Part shown: positions 130 to 18,486 of the stretch, one piece after another | How the letters are laid out: each line of letters starts with the position of its first letter | How positions within the stretch are numbered: the first letter of the stretch is position 1 | Source: a virus | Direction: 5' to 3' (one strand) | DNA: 20,120 bases | Virus record (IMG/VR): IMGVR_UViG_3300032116_001651 | Coordinates: 1 to 20,120 of that record | Translations under genes and position numbers: made by a program | Notes under the pieces: generated by a model | Told to the model about the DNA's origin: nothing | Databases searched by the model: none | What the model saw: the letters and a program-made list of their open reading frames with translations, nothing else

Positions 130-834
130 ATGAACAAAAAAATTAAAATTCTTGAAAATATGATCCGCAGCGAAATTCAAAGGCAACTGAGCGAGTCAGA
201 TAATTCTGAATTATCAAGTTACGGAATTTCAGAACTCAAAGATGGTTTAACTGTTGATGTTATAAAAAAGTATTTTTCTTGGATTTTGAAATCTAAAATC
301 AATGGTGCAATTCTTGGGTTAAATAAAAGCGGATTAGTTTGGCACGGTGGGACATGGGAACGTGGAACATGGTACAATGGAACGTGGAAGGATGGAATAT
401 GGAAAGACGGTTGGTGGATGAATGGAATATGGAAAGACGGAACGTGGTACGCAGGAACATGGTACAATGGAACATGGGAATACGGAACATGGAAATCCGG
501 TTGGTGGGAAAAAGGAACGTGGAGCAATGGAACTTGGGAGGATGGAACTTGGGAGGATGGAACATGGAAATCCGGAATATTTGATGGTGGAGCATGGAAA
601 TTGGGAACGTGGAGCAATGGAAATTGGGATGGTGGAAACTGGTACGGTGGAACATGGGAAGATGGATCATGGAAATCGGGAGATTGGTACAATGGTCTGT
701 GGAAATCAGGAACTTGGCATGATGGAACTTGGCATGACGGAACGTGGAAATCTGGAACGTGGAAATCTGGTCGGTGGAAGCGTGGTATGTGGAAATCCCC
801 TGAACCACATCCTAATAAAATAAAAACTTTTTAA
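130..834 (+). CDS. Trp-pentapeptide (GTWxx) repeat protein with capsid-targeting-like leader
   Basis: A 234-residue protein. Residues 1-22 form a basic amphipathic helix (ILENMIRSEIQRQLSE) ending in L-S-E, matching the (I/L)-x-E site used by T4-type prohead proteases. A linker of about 48 residues follows. From residue 71 to 221 there is an aromatic residue at every fifth position (30 Trp, 1 Phe), with Gly three residues later and usually Thr before the next Trp. Typical units are GTWKD, GTWYN and GTWKS. No insertion breaks the register over 31 units. Such regularity suggests a beta-solenoid or stacked-turn fold. It recalls MORN and pentapeptide repeats in spacing but matches neither consensus exactly. 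The leader is nearly identical to that of the next gene, 17 bases downstream. I infer a packaged head protein; the role of the repeat domain is unknown. Confidence 0.85.
   Translation: MNKKIKILENMIRSEIQRQLSESDNSELSSYGISELKDGLTVDVIKKYFSWILKSKINGAILGLNKSGLVWHGGTWERGTWYNGTWKDGIWKDGWWMNGIWKDGTWYAGTWYNGTWEYGTWKSGWWEKGTWSNGTWEDGTWEDGTWKSGIFDGGAWKLGTWSNGNWDGGNWYGGTWEDGSWKSGDWYNGLWKSGTWHDGTWHDGTWKSGTWKSGRWKRGMWKSPEPHPNKIKTF
340..804 (+). repeat. Array of 31 imperfect 15-base tandem units inside the Trp-repeat gene
   Basis: The array encodes the pentapeptide units of the protein at 130-834. A typical unit reads tggaaagacggaaca. Codons for Trp and Gly are invariant in most units and the other positions vary. 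The 15-base period keeps several other frames free of stops, so long antisense and offset frames across it are artefacts. Identical neighbouring units, such as the paired EDGTW and HDGTW copies, suggest recent unit duplication. Confidence 0.9.
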
Positions 835-851
835 ATAAAAGGAAACCAAAA

Positions 852-1358
852 ATGAACAGAAAAATTAAAATTCTCGAAAACATGATCAGGACAGAAGTTC
901 GCAGACAAATTATAGAGGGTAAGAAGGTTTTCAAATTAAATCCGCCCATCGGTCGTGCCAAATATAGTATTAGTTCTCACGATGGTGTGAAAACACATCG
1001 AGATGGAAGCGATTTTTGGGATATTGAAATTTTTAAAAATAAAGTAGATTTGGCAAAAGCAATTAAGAAATATAAAAATGATGGATTTATTGAGGAGTCG
1101 GCGAACAGCAGATTCTCCACTAATTTATCTCGCTTGCGAATAGAGCAATCTGACAGCAATGATGACGACTACGAATCTCAGTATTGGTCTGCACCGGACA
1201 AAATACGAAATATGATAGATGCTGTTTCGATGCGCATAGAACGAGGAGGAAAGGACTCATACAAGGCTCTTTCCGATTTGAACCGAGTTTTGAACCGTCA
1301 TGGGTGGGAAATTGAGTATGGTCTTGACGGCGAAATACACACTCTTAGAAAAATTTAA
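852..1358 (+). CDS. Small protein with capsid-targeting-like leader, body unknown
   Basis: A 168-residue protein preceded by AAAGGAAACC about eight bases before the ATG. Residues 1-22 (KIKILENMIRTEVRRQIIE) repeat the leader of the preceding gene with only a few changes and end in I-I-E, a candidate prohead-protease site. The body is hydrophilic, with a DxxD-rich centre near residues 98-106 (SDSNDDDYE). The C-terminal third (about 117-168) looks like a compact helix plus strand module ending GWEIEYGLDGEIHTLRKI. I recognise no family for the body. The position beside a leader-sharing gene supports a packaged head protein; this is inference from the leader alone. Confidence 0.8.
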   Translation: MNRKIKILENMIRTEVRRQIIEGKKVFKLNPPIGRAKYSISSHDGVKTHRDGSDFWDIEIFKNKVDLAKAIKKYKNDGFIEESANSRFSTNLSRLRIEQSDSNDDDYESQYWSAPDKIRNMIDAVSMRIERGGKDSYKALSDLNRVLNRHGWEIEYGLDGEIHTLRKI

Positions 1359-5110: not shown

Positions 5111-5233
5111 TTATATAAAAACAAGAAATTAACTATGAAAAAAAATTATCAAAATTTCGACCGAAAGAAGTTGTTGGAATCTAAACTTAAAAAAGTAATC
5201 AAACCTATCGTTGAAAGAATGTTGAGAGAAGAA
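5111..5233 (+). repeat. Direct repeat copy A: leader plus capsid-targeting-like coding segment
   Basis: This 123-base stretch recurs 400 bases downstream at 5511-5633 with only three differences (5124/5524, 5140/5540, 5209/5609). It spans the AT-rich upstream TTATATAAAAACA, the ribosome site, the ATG and about 33 codons. Identity stops abruptly where the bodies of the two genes begin, so what is duplicated is the expression signal plus the tag and not the whole gene. Confidence 0.95.
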
Positions 5234-5509
5234 AATGAAGAACTTCCGGAGGGCTGGACAAAACAAAAAGAATGGTACGGCAATCCATCGCTGGGATATG
5301 ATTCTTATATGAAAATGTTTGGATCACGCCGCACGAAAAAGATTCCTGTATATGTTTACGGTAAAGATGGAAAATGGGGAAATTTCACAGTAGCGGCCGG
5401 ATCCAGCAGCGAATATTCGTATAGTGGACTGATACCAAATTCAAATAGCTATATGGACGTTATCAATGGTGTTGAACTTTTGGATCGTGCTGGCAAACTA
5501 ATAAAATAA
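5135..5509 (+). CDS. Small protein with capsid-targeting-like leader (copy A), unknown body
   Basis: A 124-residue protein. Residues 1-33 are a highly basic helix containing LLESKLKKVIKPIVERMLRE, ending L-R-E before an acidic stretch EENEELPEGW, so cleavage after LRE is plausible. The body (about 38-124) contains a Gly/Ser/Tyr-rich segment and the end GVELLDRAGKLIK. I recognise no family. Its leader and 5' region are duplicated almost exactly in the next gene, whose body is unrelated. I infer a packaged head protein from the leader only. Confidence 0.75.
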   Translation: MKKNYQNFDRKKLLESKLKKVIKPIVERMLREENEELPEGWTKQKEWYGNPSLGYDSYMKMFGSRRTKKIPVYVYGKDGKWGNFTVAAGSSSEYSYSGLIPNSNSYMDVINGVELLDRAGKLIK

Positions 5510-5510
5510 T

Positions 5511-5633
5511 TTATATAAAAACAGGAAATTAACTATGAACAAAAATTATCAAAATTTCGACCGAAAGAAGTTGTTGGAATCTAAACTTAAAAAAGTAATC
5601 AAACCTATTGTTGAAAGAATGTTGAGAGAAGAA
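5511..5633 (+). repeat. Direct repeat copy B: leader plus capsid-targeting-like coding segment
   Basis: Second copy of the 123-base element at 5111-5233, with 120 of 123 positions identical. Here the ribosome site reads ACAGGAAATT rather than ACAAGAAATT, a better Shine-Dalgarno match. Bases after 5633 diverge completely from copy A. Confidence 0.95.
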
Positions 5634-5810
5634 GACAATGATGATGACTTTAAGATACATGGGGAACAATTGGCAGAAAAAAGCGGCGGTAGTGGTGAGT
5701 ATATTAACAAGATATATTTTGCAGCACTTACTGAGGCAAACTATCACGAATTTAGAAAAAAAGTAGAACCTATTATAAATAGGTATTTTGCCTCCGCTCA
5801 GAAAGGGTGA
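5535..5810 (+). CDS. Small protein with capsid-targeting-like leader (copy B)
   Basis: A 91-residue protein. Residues 1-33 match the leader of the preceding gene except for one residue. The body (about 38-91) is a small helical domain containing ALTEANYHEFRKKVEPIINR and ending FASAQKG. A close relative of this body, sharing YHEFRKK(V/I)EPIIN and FASA(Q/R)KG, forms the C-terminus of the gene at 5917-6474, including about 30 bases after the stop. The gene is therefore a chimera: leader from copy A, body shared with the next gene. Function unknown; packaging is inferred from the leader. Confidence 0.75.
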   Translation: MNKNYQNFDRKKLLESKLKKVIKPIVERMLREEDNDDDFKIHGEQLAEKSGGSGEYINKIYFAALTEANYHEFRKKVEPIINRYFASAQKG

Positions 5811-8640: not shown

Positions 8641-8958
8641 ATGACTTCTAATTACTTGAAAAATTACATCAAATCGGTTGTTTTAAACGAGATTTCTAAA
8701 CAAAAAAGAACAAAGGTTCGCTCTCTCAGAGAAAGTAGCAATGTCGGAGATATTAAGTCTGTCTCTGACTTGGAAGATCACAAATATCAATTCATATCGG
8801 ATTCCCAAGAGGTAGCATCGGTGTTAGAAAATATCGGTATTGATCCGGACGAATATGATTCTGTATTTGCTGTAATAGGGGACGGAGATTATGAAGAAGT
8901 ATGGGGTATGTCCGGAATAGTCCCGCATTTGAACAAGAGAGTAGAAAGACTCGCTTAA
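8641..8958 (+). CDS. Small acidic protein with capsid-targeting-like leader
   Basis: A 105-residue protein with a good ribosome site (TTGAGGAAAAAAC). Residues 1-31 are a basic leader, YLKNYIKSVVLNEISKQK, running to S-L-R-E, a candidate (I/L)-x-E cleavage site. The remaining 75 residues are acidic, with DSQEVASVLENIGIDPDEYD and VFAVIGDGDYEEVWGM. I recognise no family. The leader and the bases around the start are paralogous to those of the next gene, again with an unrelated body. A packaged head protein is inferred. Confidence 0.75.
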   Translation: MTSNYLKNYIKSVVLNEISKQKRTKVRSLRESSNVGDIKSVSDLEDHKYQFISDSQEVASVLENIGIDPDEYDSVFAVIGDGDYEEVWGMSGIVPHLNKRVERLA

Positions 8959-9003: not shown

Positions 9004-9519
9004 ATGACTTCAAGTTATTTAAAAAAGTACATCAAATCCGTAGTTTTACAAGAAATCTCTAACCAAAAAAAATCTAAATTTAGATTGAACGAGATGGCAA
9101 AGCAAGTCTATACTATCGGAAACATTCAAGCATCTTTTGATGATACTAACAGTCGGATTTCGAAACAACCGTGGAGCGGCGGAAAAAGTGCGTTTAAAAA
9201 CAGGGTATATGTAAAAAATACAGAAACTGGTGCTAAGATATTTTTTGATATGCACGGCAGTGTTGCCGATTATGGTTCCAACAAACCTACCGATATAAAA
9301 AGCGCACTTGCATCATTTTTGAAAGATGCAGACGCAGGATTTCAGTTTTCTGATCCAGAAGAGTTGGCAGACAATTATGGATATGACATGGAGACTAATC
9401 GTGCCGAAGTAAGACGTATTTTTAAGGGTGTACAAGGCGCAGCAGCAAAGGTAGAGAAATTAGACCTTTCACACGATGACGTGATAGATATGCTTAACGG
9501 CGAACTTAGTGATTATTAA
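9004..9519 (+). CDS. Protein with capsid-targeting-like leader, body unknown
   Basis: A 171-residue protein preceded by ATAAGGAAAAAAC. The leader YLKKYIKSVVLQEISNQK matches that of the preceding gene almost residue for residue and ends FRLNE, so L-N-E at 28-30 is a candidate cleavage site. The body starts MAKQVYTIGNIQASFDD and has a beta-rich first half, with a Trp-Ser-Gly-Gly turn and RVYVKNTETGAKIFFDMHG. An acidic helical second half ends LDLSHDDVIDMLNGELSDY. No catalytic motif is visible. The role is inferred only from the leader. Confidence 0.75.
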   Translation: MTSSYLKKYIKSVVLQEISNQKKSKFRLNEMAKQVYTIGNIQASFDDTNSRISKQPWSGGKSAFKNRVYVKNTETGAKIFFDMHGSVADYGSNKPTDIKSALASFLKDADAGFQFSDPEELADNYGYDMETNRAEVRRIFKGVQGAAAKVEKLDLSHDDVIDMLNGELSDY

Positions 9520-12674: not shown

Positions 12675-13562
12675 ATGAACAAACGTAATTTAGTCGAAAT
12701 GGTTCGTGGTATTGTGCGTGAAGAAGTTAGGTATATCAATCCAAATCGTTTTGATAAAGAAGAGCCGCTTAAAGACAATCAGACTCTTAGAGTTTTTCAT
12801 GGATTTAATTCATTTGAAGACGTAAAGAAGGTTATTAATATCGGACTTACGGGCAAGAGAAAAGCGGCGAGAATTTATAGTTACGAAGCGGAAAATAACC
12901 CTTACGGATTATTTGTTTCTATTGATCCGAACATAGTAAAAAAAGAATTTGCAAATAGTGGAGTAATAATTGAATTTTCCGCAAGGGTTAGTGATTTAGA
13001 GGCTCCTGTTTGGGTTGGCGGCAGAAGCTATTTTGTTCAGGGAGAGTATGCTGAATCGTTTAAAAATATGGATGAGCGGGAACAACAGAAACTTCTTAAC
13101 AGACAACGCGCCGGGGAATCTCCGTATGACTATATTTCAAAATCCGATAGGCCGGAACTGGCGGAAACAATATTCGAGAACGCGGAGAAGCAGGCTTTGT
13201 TTGTAGGCGATTTAGACCCAAATATGATAAAATATGTTTGGTATAATGAGAGATTGCACAAAGATCGTATGTTGGGCGGAAGTTGGACAAGGATGAAGAG
13301 AGCCGATTTTCTTAAAAAAGTCGATACCAAGTATCAAGACACGAGGTCATTTAAGTATTTGCCAAATGAAAATTTTGAGTTTGATAAGTTTGTAAAGAAG
13401 CGTTTTAAGGGAGATTATAATAATCGTATTTTGCAAAGTTTTCTAAAATCACTTCCAAAAGACGAATTCGAATTGGCAGAATACGGATTTTATCCAAAAC
13501 AGATAAAGCAATTCATGCAGCTACAAGATGAAGGTTTTTTTGATAAATACATTAATTCTTAA
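12675..13562 (+). CDS. ADP-ribosyltransferase-like protein with capsid-targeting-like leader
   Basis: The ATG at 12675 is preferred over TTG 12666; GATTGGAAAAT precedes it. The product is 295 residues. Residues 1-20 (NLVEMVRGIVREEVRYI) resemble the shared leader, with L-V-E inside it. Three features fit the ADP-ribosyltransferase fold: LRVFHGF (R39/H42) on a first strand, then YGLFVS (77-82) followed by a helix that could serve as the STS-type strand, then FVQGEYAE, where Q-G-E (122-124) matches the catalytic (E/Q)-x-E. PVWVGG precedes it. T4 Alt is a packaged ADP-ribosyltransferase with a cleaved leader, so leader plus this fold is a striking parallel. The C-terminal 150 residues are helical and unassigned. 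The fold call rests on motifs only. Confidence 0.5.
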   Translation: MNKRNLVEMVRGIVREEVRYINPNRFDKEEPLKDNQTLRVFHGFNSFEDVKKVINIGLTGKRKAARIYSYEAENNPYGLFVSIDPNIVKKEFANSGVIIEFSARVSDLEAPVWVGGRSYFVQGEYAESFKNMDEREQQKLLNRQRAGESPYDYISKSDRPELAETIFENAEKQALFVGDLDPNMIKYVWYNERLHKDRMLGGSWTRMKRADFLKKVDTKYQDTRSFKYLPNENFEFDKFVKKRFKGDYNNRILQSFLKSLPKDEFELAEYGFYPKQIKQFMQLQDEGFFDKYINS

Positions 13563-13565
13563 CCA

Positions 13566-14192
13566 ATGCCATACTTAAACTCGAATATACCAGTCATTGA
13601 CTGCTATTTTAGAAACGAATATCTTTTCAACCATACCAAAGGGTATGGAGAATTTACAAAATGTAATGTTCACTCTGTCGCAAGCATAGAATCAAGAACA
13701 CTTTTGTTTGAGGTTTTTCTTGAAAATGGTGTAAATTGGACTCGGAGACCTATTACTTCTTTTTGTTGGAAGCAAGACGCCCCAGTCCATCCGTTAGAAG
13801 AACACATATATTGGGACTGTTTTTCCTATTATATAGACGTTCAAATACGCCATAGACTTCAAGGTTTAAGTGCCGACTTGATTTCTATATCTGGTAAAAA
13901 GTATGTTGGTGAATATTTATTTACAATAGACTGGGCACACGAAAATAATATGATGTGCAACGTGTCTTTTGGAGAATCTCCGGAACACAAATGCGCACAC
14001 ATATTCAAGGTTGAAGATGGTAATTTTTTCGCATATCCTAATAACAGAATCGTGTGGAAAGACAGAGCGTTTACGGAAAATAGATTGACATCCAACCCGG
14101 GCTACATAATAGATCAAAAAAAATATTCTGTTGAAGGAGAATCATATTATGAATCTGACAGCAGTTATCATACGGAATTTGTAACTAAATAG
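13566..14192 (+). CDS. Conserved phage protein of unknown function
   Basis: A 208-residue protein starting three bases after the previous stop, with no strong ribosome site, so translational coupling is likely. Residues 1-40 read MPYLNSNIPVIDCYFRNEYL then HTKGYGEF. I recall proteins with this opening, with ITSFCWKQDAP, WDCFSYY and the later HKCAHIFKVEDGNFFAYPNN, from large marine myoviruses, where they carry no assigned function. Five or more Cys and several His residues are spread through the chain but form no clear metal site. It lacks the basic leader helix seen in its neighbours, so it is not obviously a packaged protein. Confidence 0.7.
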   Translation: MPYLNSNIPVIDCYFRNEYLFNHTKGYGEFTKCNVHSVASIESRTLLFEVFLENGVNWTRRPITSFCWKQDAPVHPLEEHIYWDCFSYYIDVQIRHRLQGLSADLISISGKKYVGEYLFTIDWAHENNMMCNVSFGESPEHKCAHIFKVEDGNFFAYPNNRIVWKDRAFTENRLTSNPGYIIDQKKYSVEGESYYESDSSYHTEFVTK

Positions 14193-17365: not shown

Positions 17366-17686
17366 ATGAGTACAAAACTTAGACTGTTAGAGCGTATCAT
17401 TCGCAGAGAAGTTCGCAGACAACTTGCAGAAAGTGCTGATTTAGAAAATATAAAGAATGTTTCATTCAAACAACTGGTCAATATGATTTATTCCGATTGG
17501 AAAAACGTAAGTCCTTATGCCGAACCATATCTGTCGGCAATGAGTACCATGCGTAACCCAACTGATAGATATGGATTTGATGATGGATATTCAATAATAA
17601 TGTATTTTCTGTCAAATGCTTCGCAGTGGAAAGGGCCAGTAGCAAAAGCGGTTAAAGCGGAATTGAAGAGACGCGCCAAAGGTTGA
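17366..17686 (+). CDS. Small protein with capsid-targeting-like leader
   Basis: A 106-residue protein with a good ribosome site (AAAAGGATT). Residues 1-22 (KLRLLERIIRREVRRQLAE) are one of the clearest copies of the shared leader, with L-A-E as a candidate cleavage site, and resemble the leaders at 130 and 852 at the other end of the window. The body contains SFKQLVNMIYSDWKNV, then NPTDRYGFDDGYSIIMYFLS and SNASQWKGPVAKAVKAEL. I recall similar short proteins from large phages without a known function. The cleaved product would be about 84 residues, the size class of T4 internal proteins. Confidence 0.75.
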   Translation: MSTKLRLLERIIRREVRRQLAESADLENIKNVSFKQLVNMIYSDWKNVSPYAEPYLSAMSTMRNPTDRYGFDDGYSIIMYFLSNASQWKGPVAKAVKAELKRRAKG

Positions 17687-17697
17687 GTGAAAGTCCT

Positions 17698-18486
17698 ATG
17701 ATCAAGTTACGAGATATAATATCAGAAGGAAAATATGCTGCAAGCGAAGCAGATATGAAGAAGTGGTTTGACGAGTGCATGAGGAAGTATTTTCCGCAAC
17801 ACGTATCCAAGATAACAAGACCGTTCCGAAAAATACCGAAAGGGTTTGCTGGACTGTATATTGACAATGATTGGCAAAATAACTGGATATATCCGGATTT
17901 GCAAGTAAAATCCTTGAAAGGTCACAGCGCTGCTGGTATATGCCAAACGTCTCGTATAGTGAAGAATGGTCAAATTGTTATGCCTATTATTGCTGTTTCT
18001 CCCGAGTATATTAAATTAGACGGAAGATCAATAGTATTTCACGAAACTATTCATTATATTCAGGCTTACACTTATACCAGAGCCGAGCATAATAATATGT
18101 CTAATGGAGGACACGATAGTTTTTTCAAAAAGATGATGGCAGAAATGAATGAGGTTGAAGGTGATAATTATATAACCATCGTTCACGATCGGTCAAAAAA
18201 AAGTGGTGACGAAAGTATTGGAACAAACCTTTGGATATATTTGTTTGTAAGAGACGGAAAATGGTGTACAGTAAGTTTTTCAAGAAGAAGCCCAAAGACA
18301 GTAGAATTTTTGCAGTATTATTTGCAAGGTGGTAGATATACAGAAGCATACGAAATGCGTTCTGATAAATTGAAATACGTAGGAGGAGGCTGGAAAGGAT
18401 CGAGTCTTTCATATAGAGAACTTTCAACTCCGCCATCACAAGATGAGTTGAATGGAGCATACAAAATAACACCAACAAGACAATAA
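17698..18486 (+). CDS. SprT-like zinc metalloprotease with capsid-targeting-like leader
   Basis: I chose ATG 17698 over an in-frame TTG 17683 because it starts MIKLRDIISE, a short basic leader ending I-S-E. The product is 262 residues. VFHETIHYIQAY carries HExxH at 115-119, and GGHDSFFKKMM (137-147) supplies a third ligand, H139, in the arrangement typical of SprT-type proteases (HExxH followed by GH..F). SprT/SPRTN relatives act on DNA-bound proteins. Residues 45-75 (IPKGFAGLYIDNDWQNNW) and the Tyr-rich C-terminus are unassigned. With its leader it would be a protease carried in the head. The metalloprotease motif is seen directly; packaging and substrate are inferred. Confidence 0.65.
   Translation: MIKLRDIISEGKYAASEADMKKWFDECMRKYFPQHVSKITRPFRKIPKGFAGLYIDNDWQNNWIYPDLQVKSLKGHSAAGICQTSRIVKNGQIVMPIIAVSPEYIKLDGRSIVFHETIHYIQAYTYTRAEHNNMSNGGHDSFFKKMMAEMNEVEGDNYITIVHDRSKKSGDESIGTNLWIYLFVRDGKWCTVSFSRRSPKTVEFLQYYLQGGRYTEAYEMRSDKLKYVGGGWKGSSLSYRELSTPPSQDELNGAYKITPTRQ

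What the first reader, a model, noticed from the sequence alone, without database searches (positions are those of the whole stretch)
12675..13562. Alt-like logic: ADP-ribosyltransferase-type cargo with packaging leader
R39/H42, GLFVS and Q-G-E (122-124) are spaced as in ADP-ribosyltransferases, and the protein starts with the shared helix. T4 Alt is a head-packaged ADP-ribosyltransferase that modifies host RNA polymerase on entry. No global similarity to Alt is visible, so this could be an independent or highly diverged solution to the same task.
Basis: inference. Interest (0 to 1): 0.7.

Follow-up and report, generated by a model that had tools for sequence, protein, structure and literature searches.

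The report
Head-packaged phage ADP-ribosyltransferase with cleavable tag
A gene of an uncultivated large tailed phage encodes a new family of ADP-ribosyltransferase-fold protein whose start carries a removable address tag, shared with unrelated neighbour proteins, that most likely sends it into the virus head so that it can be injected into the bacterium with the DNA.

Summary
The 295-aa ORF at 12675-13562 heads an uncharacterised family: 38 members aligned, more found later, all in uncultivated viral contigs up to 494 kb. An AlphaFold model from 38 sequences (pLDDT 91.7) matches almost only ADP-ribosyltransferases (ARTs). Single scores are modest: Foldseek best E 0.02, VIA Z at most 7.6. H42 and G-x-F80-V are invariant. 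E124 is not conserved (8/38), so Q-G-E is not the third motif. The third motif is E171-x-Q173, invariant, at the front of a later strand. [quoted passage not shown]

The leader is well supported. It resembles N-termini of unrelated genes in the same contig (permutation z 9.4; two controls flat). It differs between phages and typically ends in [L/I]xE just before the domain. Some of the same genomes carry gp21-type protease and capsid propeptides ending at the same motif. In multi-domain relatives the tag recurs at module junctions, where modules have been swapped.

Best reading: a capsid-targeted, protease-trimmed, injected ART. Packaging, cleavage, activity and host target are inferred, not shown.

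The parts
12675..13562 (+). precursor of the ART-fold protein, 295 aa
   Evidence: ORF; family of 38 aligned members; AlphaFold model pLDDT 91.7, pTM 0.86
12675..12725 (+). leader, residues 1-17: amphipathic helix (model helix 3-15), predicted capsid-targeting propeptide
   Evidence: own-contig tag test z 9.4; similarity to leaders of genes 130, 852, 9004, 17366
12714..12725 (+). predicted prohead-protease site, V14-R15-E16|E17 or R15-E16-E17|V18
   Evidence: aligned residue is E in 30 of 37 relatives, with L or I two residues before it in 27 of those 30; held-out relatives agree
12789..12800 (+). motif I on strand 37-43: R39-V-F-H42
   Evidence: H42 38/38, R39 34/38
12876..12887 (+). Y68-S-Y-E71, invariant, likely part of the NAD pocket
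   Evidence: 38/38
12906..12920 (+). motif II on strand 79-82: G78-L-F80-V-S
   Evidence: G78, F80 and V81 38/38
13038..13046 (+).
   Evidence: E124 8/38; loop in the model
13185..13193 (+). motif III at the front of strand 173-176: E171-K-Q173
   Evidence: E171 and Q173 38/38
13320..13559 (+). C-terminal helical extension (residues 216-295), possible target-recognition part
   Evidence: model helices 236-293; less conserved than the core (mean top-residue frequency 0.34 against 0.57)
130..834 (+). unrelated protein with related leader ending QLSE|S
852..1358 (+). unrelated protein with related leader ending QIIE|G
5135..5509 (+). protein with leader ending MLREE
5535..5810 (+). protein with near-identical leader to 5135
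8641..8958 (+). DUF6839 protein (domain at residues 39-89) behind a leader
9004..9519 (+). protein with the same leader as 8641
17366..17686 (+). protein with leader ending QLAE|S; a relative in L156 keeps the body but has another leader
17698..18486 (+). SprT-like protein with a short leader ending IISE|G

Best explanation
The gene encodes an injected effector of a large T4-like tailed phage. It would be made late, within a tail/baseplate gene cluster. The N-terminal helix would dock the precursor to the prohead core, and the phage's gp21-type protease would cut after a [V/L/I]xE site (E16 or E17). The mature ART would stay in the head and enter the next host with the DNA. There it would split NAD with a pocket formed by H42, F80, the YSYE stretch and E171/Q173, and move ADP-ribose onto a host macromolecule early in infection. 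Shown here by computation: the family, its invariant residues, the ART-like predicted fold, and a leader that is a contig-specific tag ending in a gp21-type motif. Inferred: late expression, packaging, cutting, injection, catalysis, target.
For: Fold: model pLDDT 91.7; the 50 PDB rows shown by Foldseek and by VIA are ART-fold chains such as TreX, DarT1, Tpt1, PARP16 and bacterial ART toxins; a first model from 15 sequences gave the same picture. Conservation: H42, Y68SYE71, G78xFV81, E171xQ173 in 38/38. Leader: own-contig effect z 9.4, controls z 1.3 and 1.4; E at the boundary in 30/37, L/I at P3 in 27 of those 30; held-out relatives L106, L107, L113, L130, L132, L137, L139 and L141 all end in E. 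Protease: Peptidase_S77 in 8 of 22 relatives' records. Capsid: in those genomes the Gp23-type proteins show propeptide ends, read by eye, MINE|S, LINE|A, LIYE|A, LTE|S, LNE|A, IFE|S. Precedent: T4 internal proteins and Alt carry 7-19-residue propeptides removed by gp21 (PMC9026906; PMC5694885); phage ARTs are often virion-packaged (PMC9503650). A neighbour in L009 is a Pfam ART-PolyVal protein whose own leader ends LISE|A.
Against: No single structural score is significant alone (best Foldseek E 0.024; Z at most 7.6). No sequence-profile link to a known ART family. Motif II has Phe where the H-Y clade has Tyr, and motif III has Gln where Glu is usual, so activity is unproven. The window's own site is a weak fit, (V)R-E-E rather than LxE. 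Members in the largest phages (L036, L038) and in L039 and L064 carry another leader type (M-WY-x-L-A), and no S77 or S78 protease was found in the records of L036 and L038 (L039 was not searched). No virion proteome exists.
Confidence: 0.7

Rival explanations
1. The ART fold is real, but the protein is not a transferase of macromolecules: it is a dead fold used for binding, an NAD glycohydrolase, or a phosphate-accepting enzyme like KptA/Tpt1.
For: Phe at motif II and Gln at motif III; Tpt1/KptA chains are among the structural matches.
Against: 38/38 conservation of H42, E171, Q173 and the YSYE stretch points to a kept active site; Gln is an accepted third residue in the H-Y-[EDQ] clade (PMC7955679).
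Confidence: 0.2
2. The leader is a cleavable or docking tag for another virion part (baseplate or tail) or another assembly step, not the head.
For: In the window the gene sits in a run of tail/baseplate-like genes; relatives mostly do not lie next to head genes.
Against: The leaders end in the motif found at capsid-protein propeptide ends of the same genomes; known T4 capsid-targeting leaders behave this way; genes of the Alt family are themselves linked to baseplate genes (PMC5512222).
Confidence: 0.15
3. It is an ART made and used inside the infected cell like T4 ModA/ModB, and the N-terminal helix is simply part of its fold.
For: The model gives a helix at 3-15 and no virion data exist.
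Against: The leader varies between phages while the core is kept, matches unrelated genes of the same contig, and has lower model confidence (about 71) than the core.
Confidence: 0.1

Closest known systems
T4 Alt (head-packaged ART)
   Same: ART type; short N-terminal propeptide; Alt-family genes lie near baseplate genes
   Different: Alt belongs to the R-S-E-type clade; here H42, F80 and E-x-Q; no sequence similarity; target unknown
T4 internal proteins IPI-IPIII with capsid targeting sequence
   Same: unrelated bodies sharing an N-terminal leader that ends in a gp21-type site (PMC12373910)
   Different: body is an ART; leader sequence differs from phage to phage; the tag also occurs inside multi-domain proteins
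H-Y-[EDQ] clade ARTs (such as PARPs and diphtheria toxin)
   Same: His on strand 1; a GxF(V) strand 2; E/D/Q position at the front of the late strand
   Different: Phe instead of Tyr in motif II; no profile similarity
ART-PolyVal (PF18760) and polyvalent proteins
   Same: phage-borne, thought to be injected; found next to or fused to this family (L009, L041)
   Different: no significant profile match (hhalign probability 0.5%)
Bacillus phage G gp53
   Same: best viral structural match (E 2e-5); HGT, VYLT and a third-motif Q by eye
   Different: not found by the family profile in that genome; no comparable leader seen

Membership tests
ADP-ribosyltransferase superfamily | ART split-sheet fold | tested here: met
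   PDB rows shown are ART folds; single scores modest, E 0.024 and Z 7.6
ADP-ribosyltransferase superfamily | NAD-dependent activity | not testable with these tools
   needs purified protein
H-Y-[EDQ] clade | His on strand 1 | tested here: met
   H42 38/38, strand 37-43
H-Y-[EDQ] clade | Tyr on strand 2 | tested here: not met
   F80 in 38/38, so not filed as a strict clade member
H-Y-[EDQ] clade | E, D or Q at the front of strand 5 | tested here: met
   Q173 38/38 at the start of strand 173-176; equivalence read from strand order, not from superposed coordinates
T4 Alt family | (E/Q)-x-E catalytic motif | tested here: not met
   E171-x-Q173 invariant; E124 8/38
T4 Alt family | packaged in the head | not testable with these tools
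   no virion data
capsid-targeting-sequence proteins | short N-terminal propeptide ending in a gp21-type site | tested here: met
   8-24 residues, [L/I]xE in 27 of 30 relatives with E at the boundary; the window's own site is a weaker fit
capsid-targeting-sequence proteins | leader shared by otherwise unrelated proteins of one phage | tested here: met
   z 9.4 over 36 loci
capsid-targeting-sequence proteins | phage encodes a gp21-type protease | tested here: inconclusive
   found in 8 of 22 relatives' records; the window is a 20-kb fragment
capsid-targeting-sequence proteins | protein found trimmed inside virions | not testable with these tools
   uncultivated phage
ART-PolyVal PF18760 | profile match over the curated cut-off | tested here: not met

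The most novel reading that the evidence does not exclude
Many large phages use a phage-specific, removable N-terminal address tag to load a whole set of injected effectors, several of them ARTs. Their giant multi-domain 'polyvalent' proteins would be strings of such tagged modules that the prohead protease cuts apart inside the capsid.
Probability: 0.4. Interest if true: 0.78.

Novelty: new variant of a known kind. Interest (0 to 1): 0.62.

Why it matters
If right, the leader gives a sequence-only way to list the injected effector set of uncultivated large phages, whose early host takeover is mostly unknown. It adds an undescribed ART family with an H-F-(E-x-Q) active site. It also makes a testable proposal for how polyvalent phage proteins are turned into separate effectors.

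Tried and rejected
Q122-G-E124 as catalytic motif: rejected by conservation. Sequence search against Pfam, PHROGs, NCBIfam, PADLOC, PDB sequences, cultured phages and prokaryote genomes: nothing significant for the window protein; phrog_6170 (unknown function) matches 8 of 15 members weakly, best 1.2e-5. SAM_SMF hit at the C-terminus is below its cut-off. Profile comparison with ART-PolyVal: no signal. T4-type late promoter TATAAATA: 4 hits against 1.6 expected, none upstream of this gene. Peptidase_S78 in eight records lacking S77: none. Nearness of the gene to head genes: within 12 kb in 3 of 8 genomes with both, too few to count as evidence. Tree of the family: not built.

Full report
What is there. 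The window is a 20,120-base virus record. ORF 12675-13562 encodes 295 aa and sits 9 bases behind a 532-aa tail-type gene and 3 bases before the next gene. A relative of that 532-aa protein lies, in the isolated Flavobacterium phage immuto, downstream of a baseplate wedge gene and upstream of tail fibre genes. There the neighbouring tail-type genes run on without small genes between them, whereas in the window several small tagged genes lie among them, so these look like accessory insertions (inference).

Family. Direct searches of annotated collections found no relative, but IMG/VR holds dozens. I aligned 38 members (A4). Contigs reach 494 kb.

Fold. AlphaFold on A4 gave pLDDT 91.7 and pTM 0.86. 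The 50 rows shown by Foldseek and by VIA-align are ART-fold chains. Single scores are modest (E 0.024; Z 7.6 over 112 residues, rmsd 4.1 to TreX), so the case rests on the list being so uniform, and on the invariant residues falling where ART motifs fall. The viral library adds ART-like proteins of Bacillus phage G, a phage reported to carry at least ten ARTs (PMC9503650).

Active site. H42 is on strand 37-43, G78-x-F80-V on strand 79-82, E171-x-Q173 at the front of strand 173-176; all are 38/38. E124 is 8/38 and lies in a loop. The literature divides ARTs into H-H-h, H-Y-[EDQ] and R-S-E clades (PMC7955679). This family is H-F-Q, nearest the second but failing its Tyr. T4 Alt is placed in the R-S-E-2 clade (PMC5512222). 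I could not superpose coordinates, so Q173 as the catalytic position rests on strand order.

Leader. Across 36 loci, the first 26 residues match the N-termini of unrelated genes in the same contig more than those in other contigs: z 9.4, none of 20,000 permutations as high. Leader against residues 31-60 of neighbours (z 1.3) and ART core against neighbour N-termini (z 1.4) are flat. The leader is 8-24 residues long; its last residue is E in 30 of 37, with L or I at P3 in 27 of those. Relatives found afterwards agree. The window's own site is the weakest fit: V-R-E|E or R-E-E|V. Dialects differ: 'ITESQLKRLLE' (L028), 'FxxYLxE' (L012, L043), 'VEELFE' (L059), and 'WYxLA' without the E in L036, L038, L039 and L064.

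Link to the head. Peptidase_S77 occurs in 8 of 22 relatives' records and Gp23-type capsid protein in the same 8 genomes. By eye, most of their capsid propeptides end MINE|S, LINE|A, LIYE|A, LTE|S, LNE|A, IFE|S. For L059 the ART leader ends LFE|AT and the capsid propeptide IFE|ST. T4 precedent.

Multi-domain relatives. In L020 the N-terminal tag MKNIIKEILRESLITE recurs before the ART as FTIKKLLRESLINE (0 of 2000 shuffles as high). In L040 it recurs with p 0.002. L041 is ART-PolyVal, tag, a GVETKN module, tag, this ART. L046 is ART-PolyVal, tag, this ART. L040 is tag, GVETKN module, tag, this ART. Modules thus come and go at the tags. That these junctions are cut is a prediction only. Earlier work noted processing of P1 DarA/DdrB before packaging and suggested autoproteolysis for DdrB (PMC5512222); in the passages I read I found no description of tags at junctions, but my paper search was limited.

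Verdict. An injected ART with a packaging leader is the best reading (0.7). Fold and tag are well supported by computation. Packaging, cutting, activity and target are not shown.

Noticed in passing
L020:6741-8951, L040:4369-7050, L041:3445-6942, L046:5122-7032, L027:25-7452, L006:7995-9572: The leader-like tag recurs inside multi-domain proteins at module junctions, and modules are gained or lost there (L040/L041/L046).
   Followed up: partly
L036, L038, L039, L064 (first two are 333-494 kb phages): A different leader type, M-x-WY-K-L-A-Q, is shared by many unrelated genes; no S77 or S78 protease was found in the records of L036, L038 and L064 (L039 not searched).
   Followed up: partly
L009:2287-2844, L028:4810-5352, L010:10195-10380, L012:8741-9604, L020:8932-9759, L036:8887-9384, L038:8352-8831: Other ART-like proteins (YHG[ST]-type motifs) with leaders of the same phage's type; L009's is Pfam ART-PolyVal, the others have no Pfam hit or were not scanned.
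   Followed up: partly
window 130-834: Leader-bearing protein built almost wholly of G-T-W-x-x-G repeats.
   Followed up: no
window 9004-9519: Leader-bearing protein with a sub-threshold match to the GmrSD restriction enzyme C-terminal domain (E 0.0011); T4 internal proteins inhibit GmrSD enzymes.
   Followed up: no
window 13566-14192: 61% identical to cyanophage proteins annotated variously as PurM, methyltransferase or hypothetical (ferredoxin in PHROGs and in a Pelagibacter phage record); the annotations conflict.
   Followed up: no
L156:1866-2267: Relative of window gene 17366 that keeps the body but has a different leader.
   Followed up: yes
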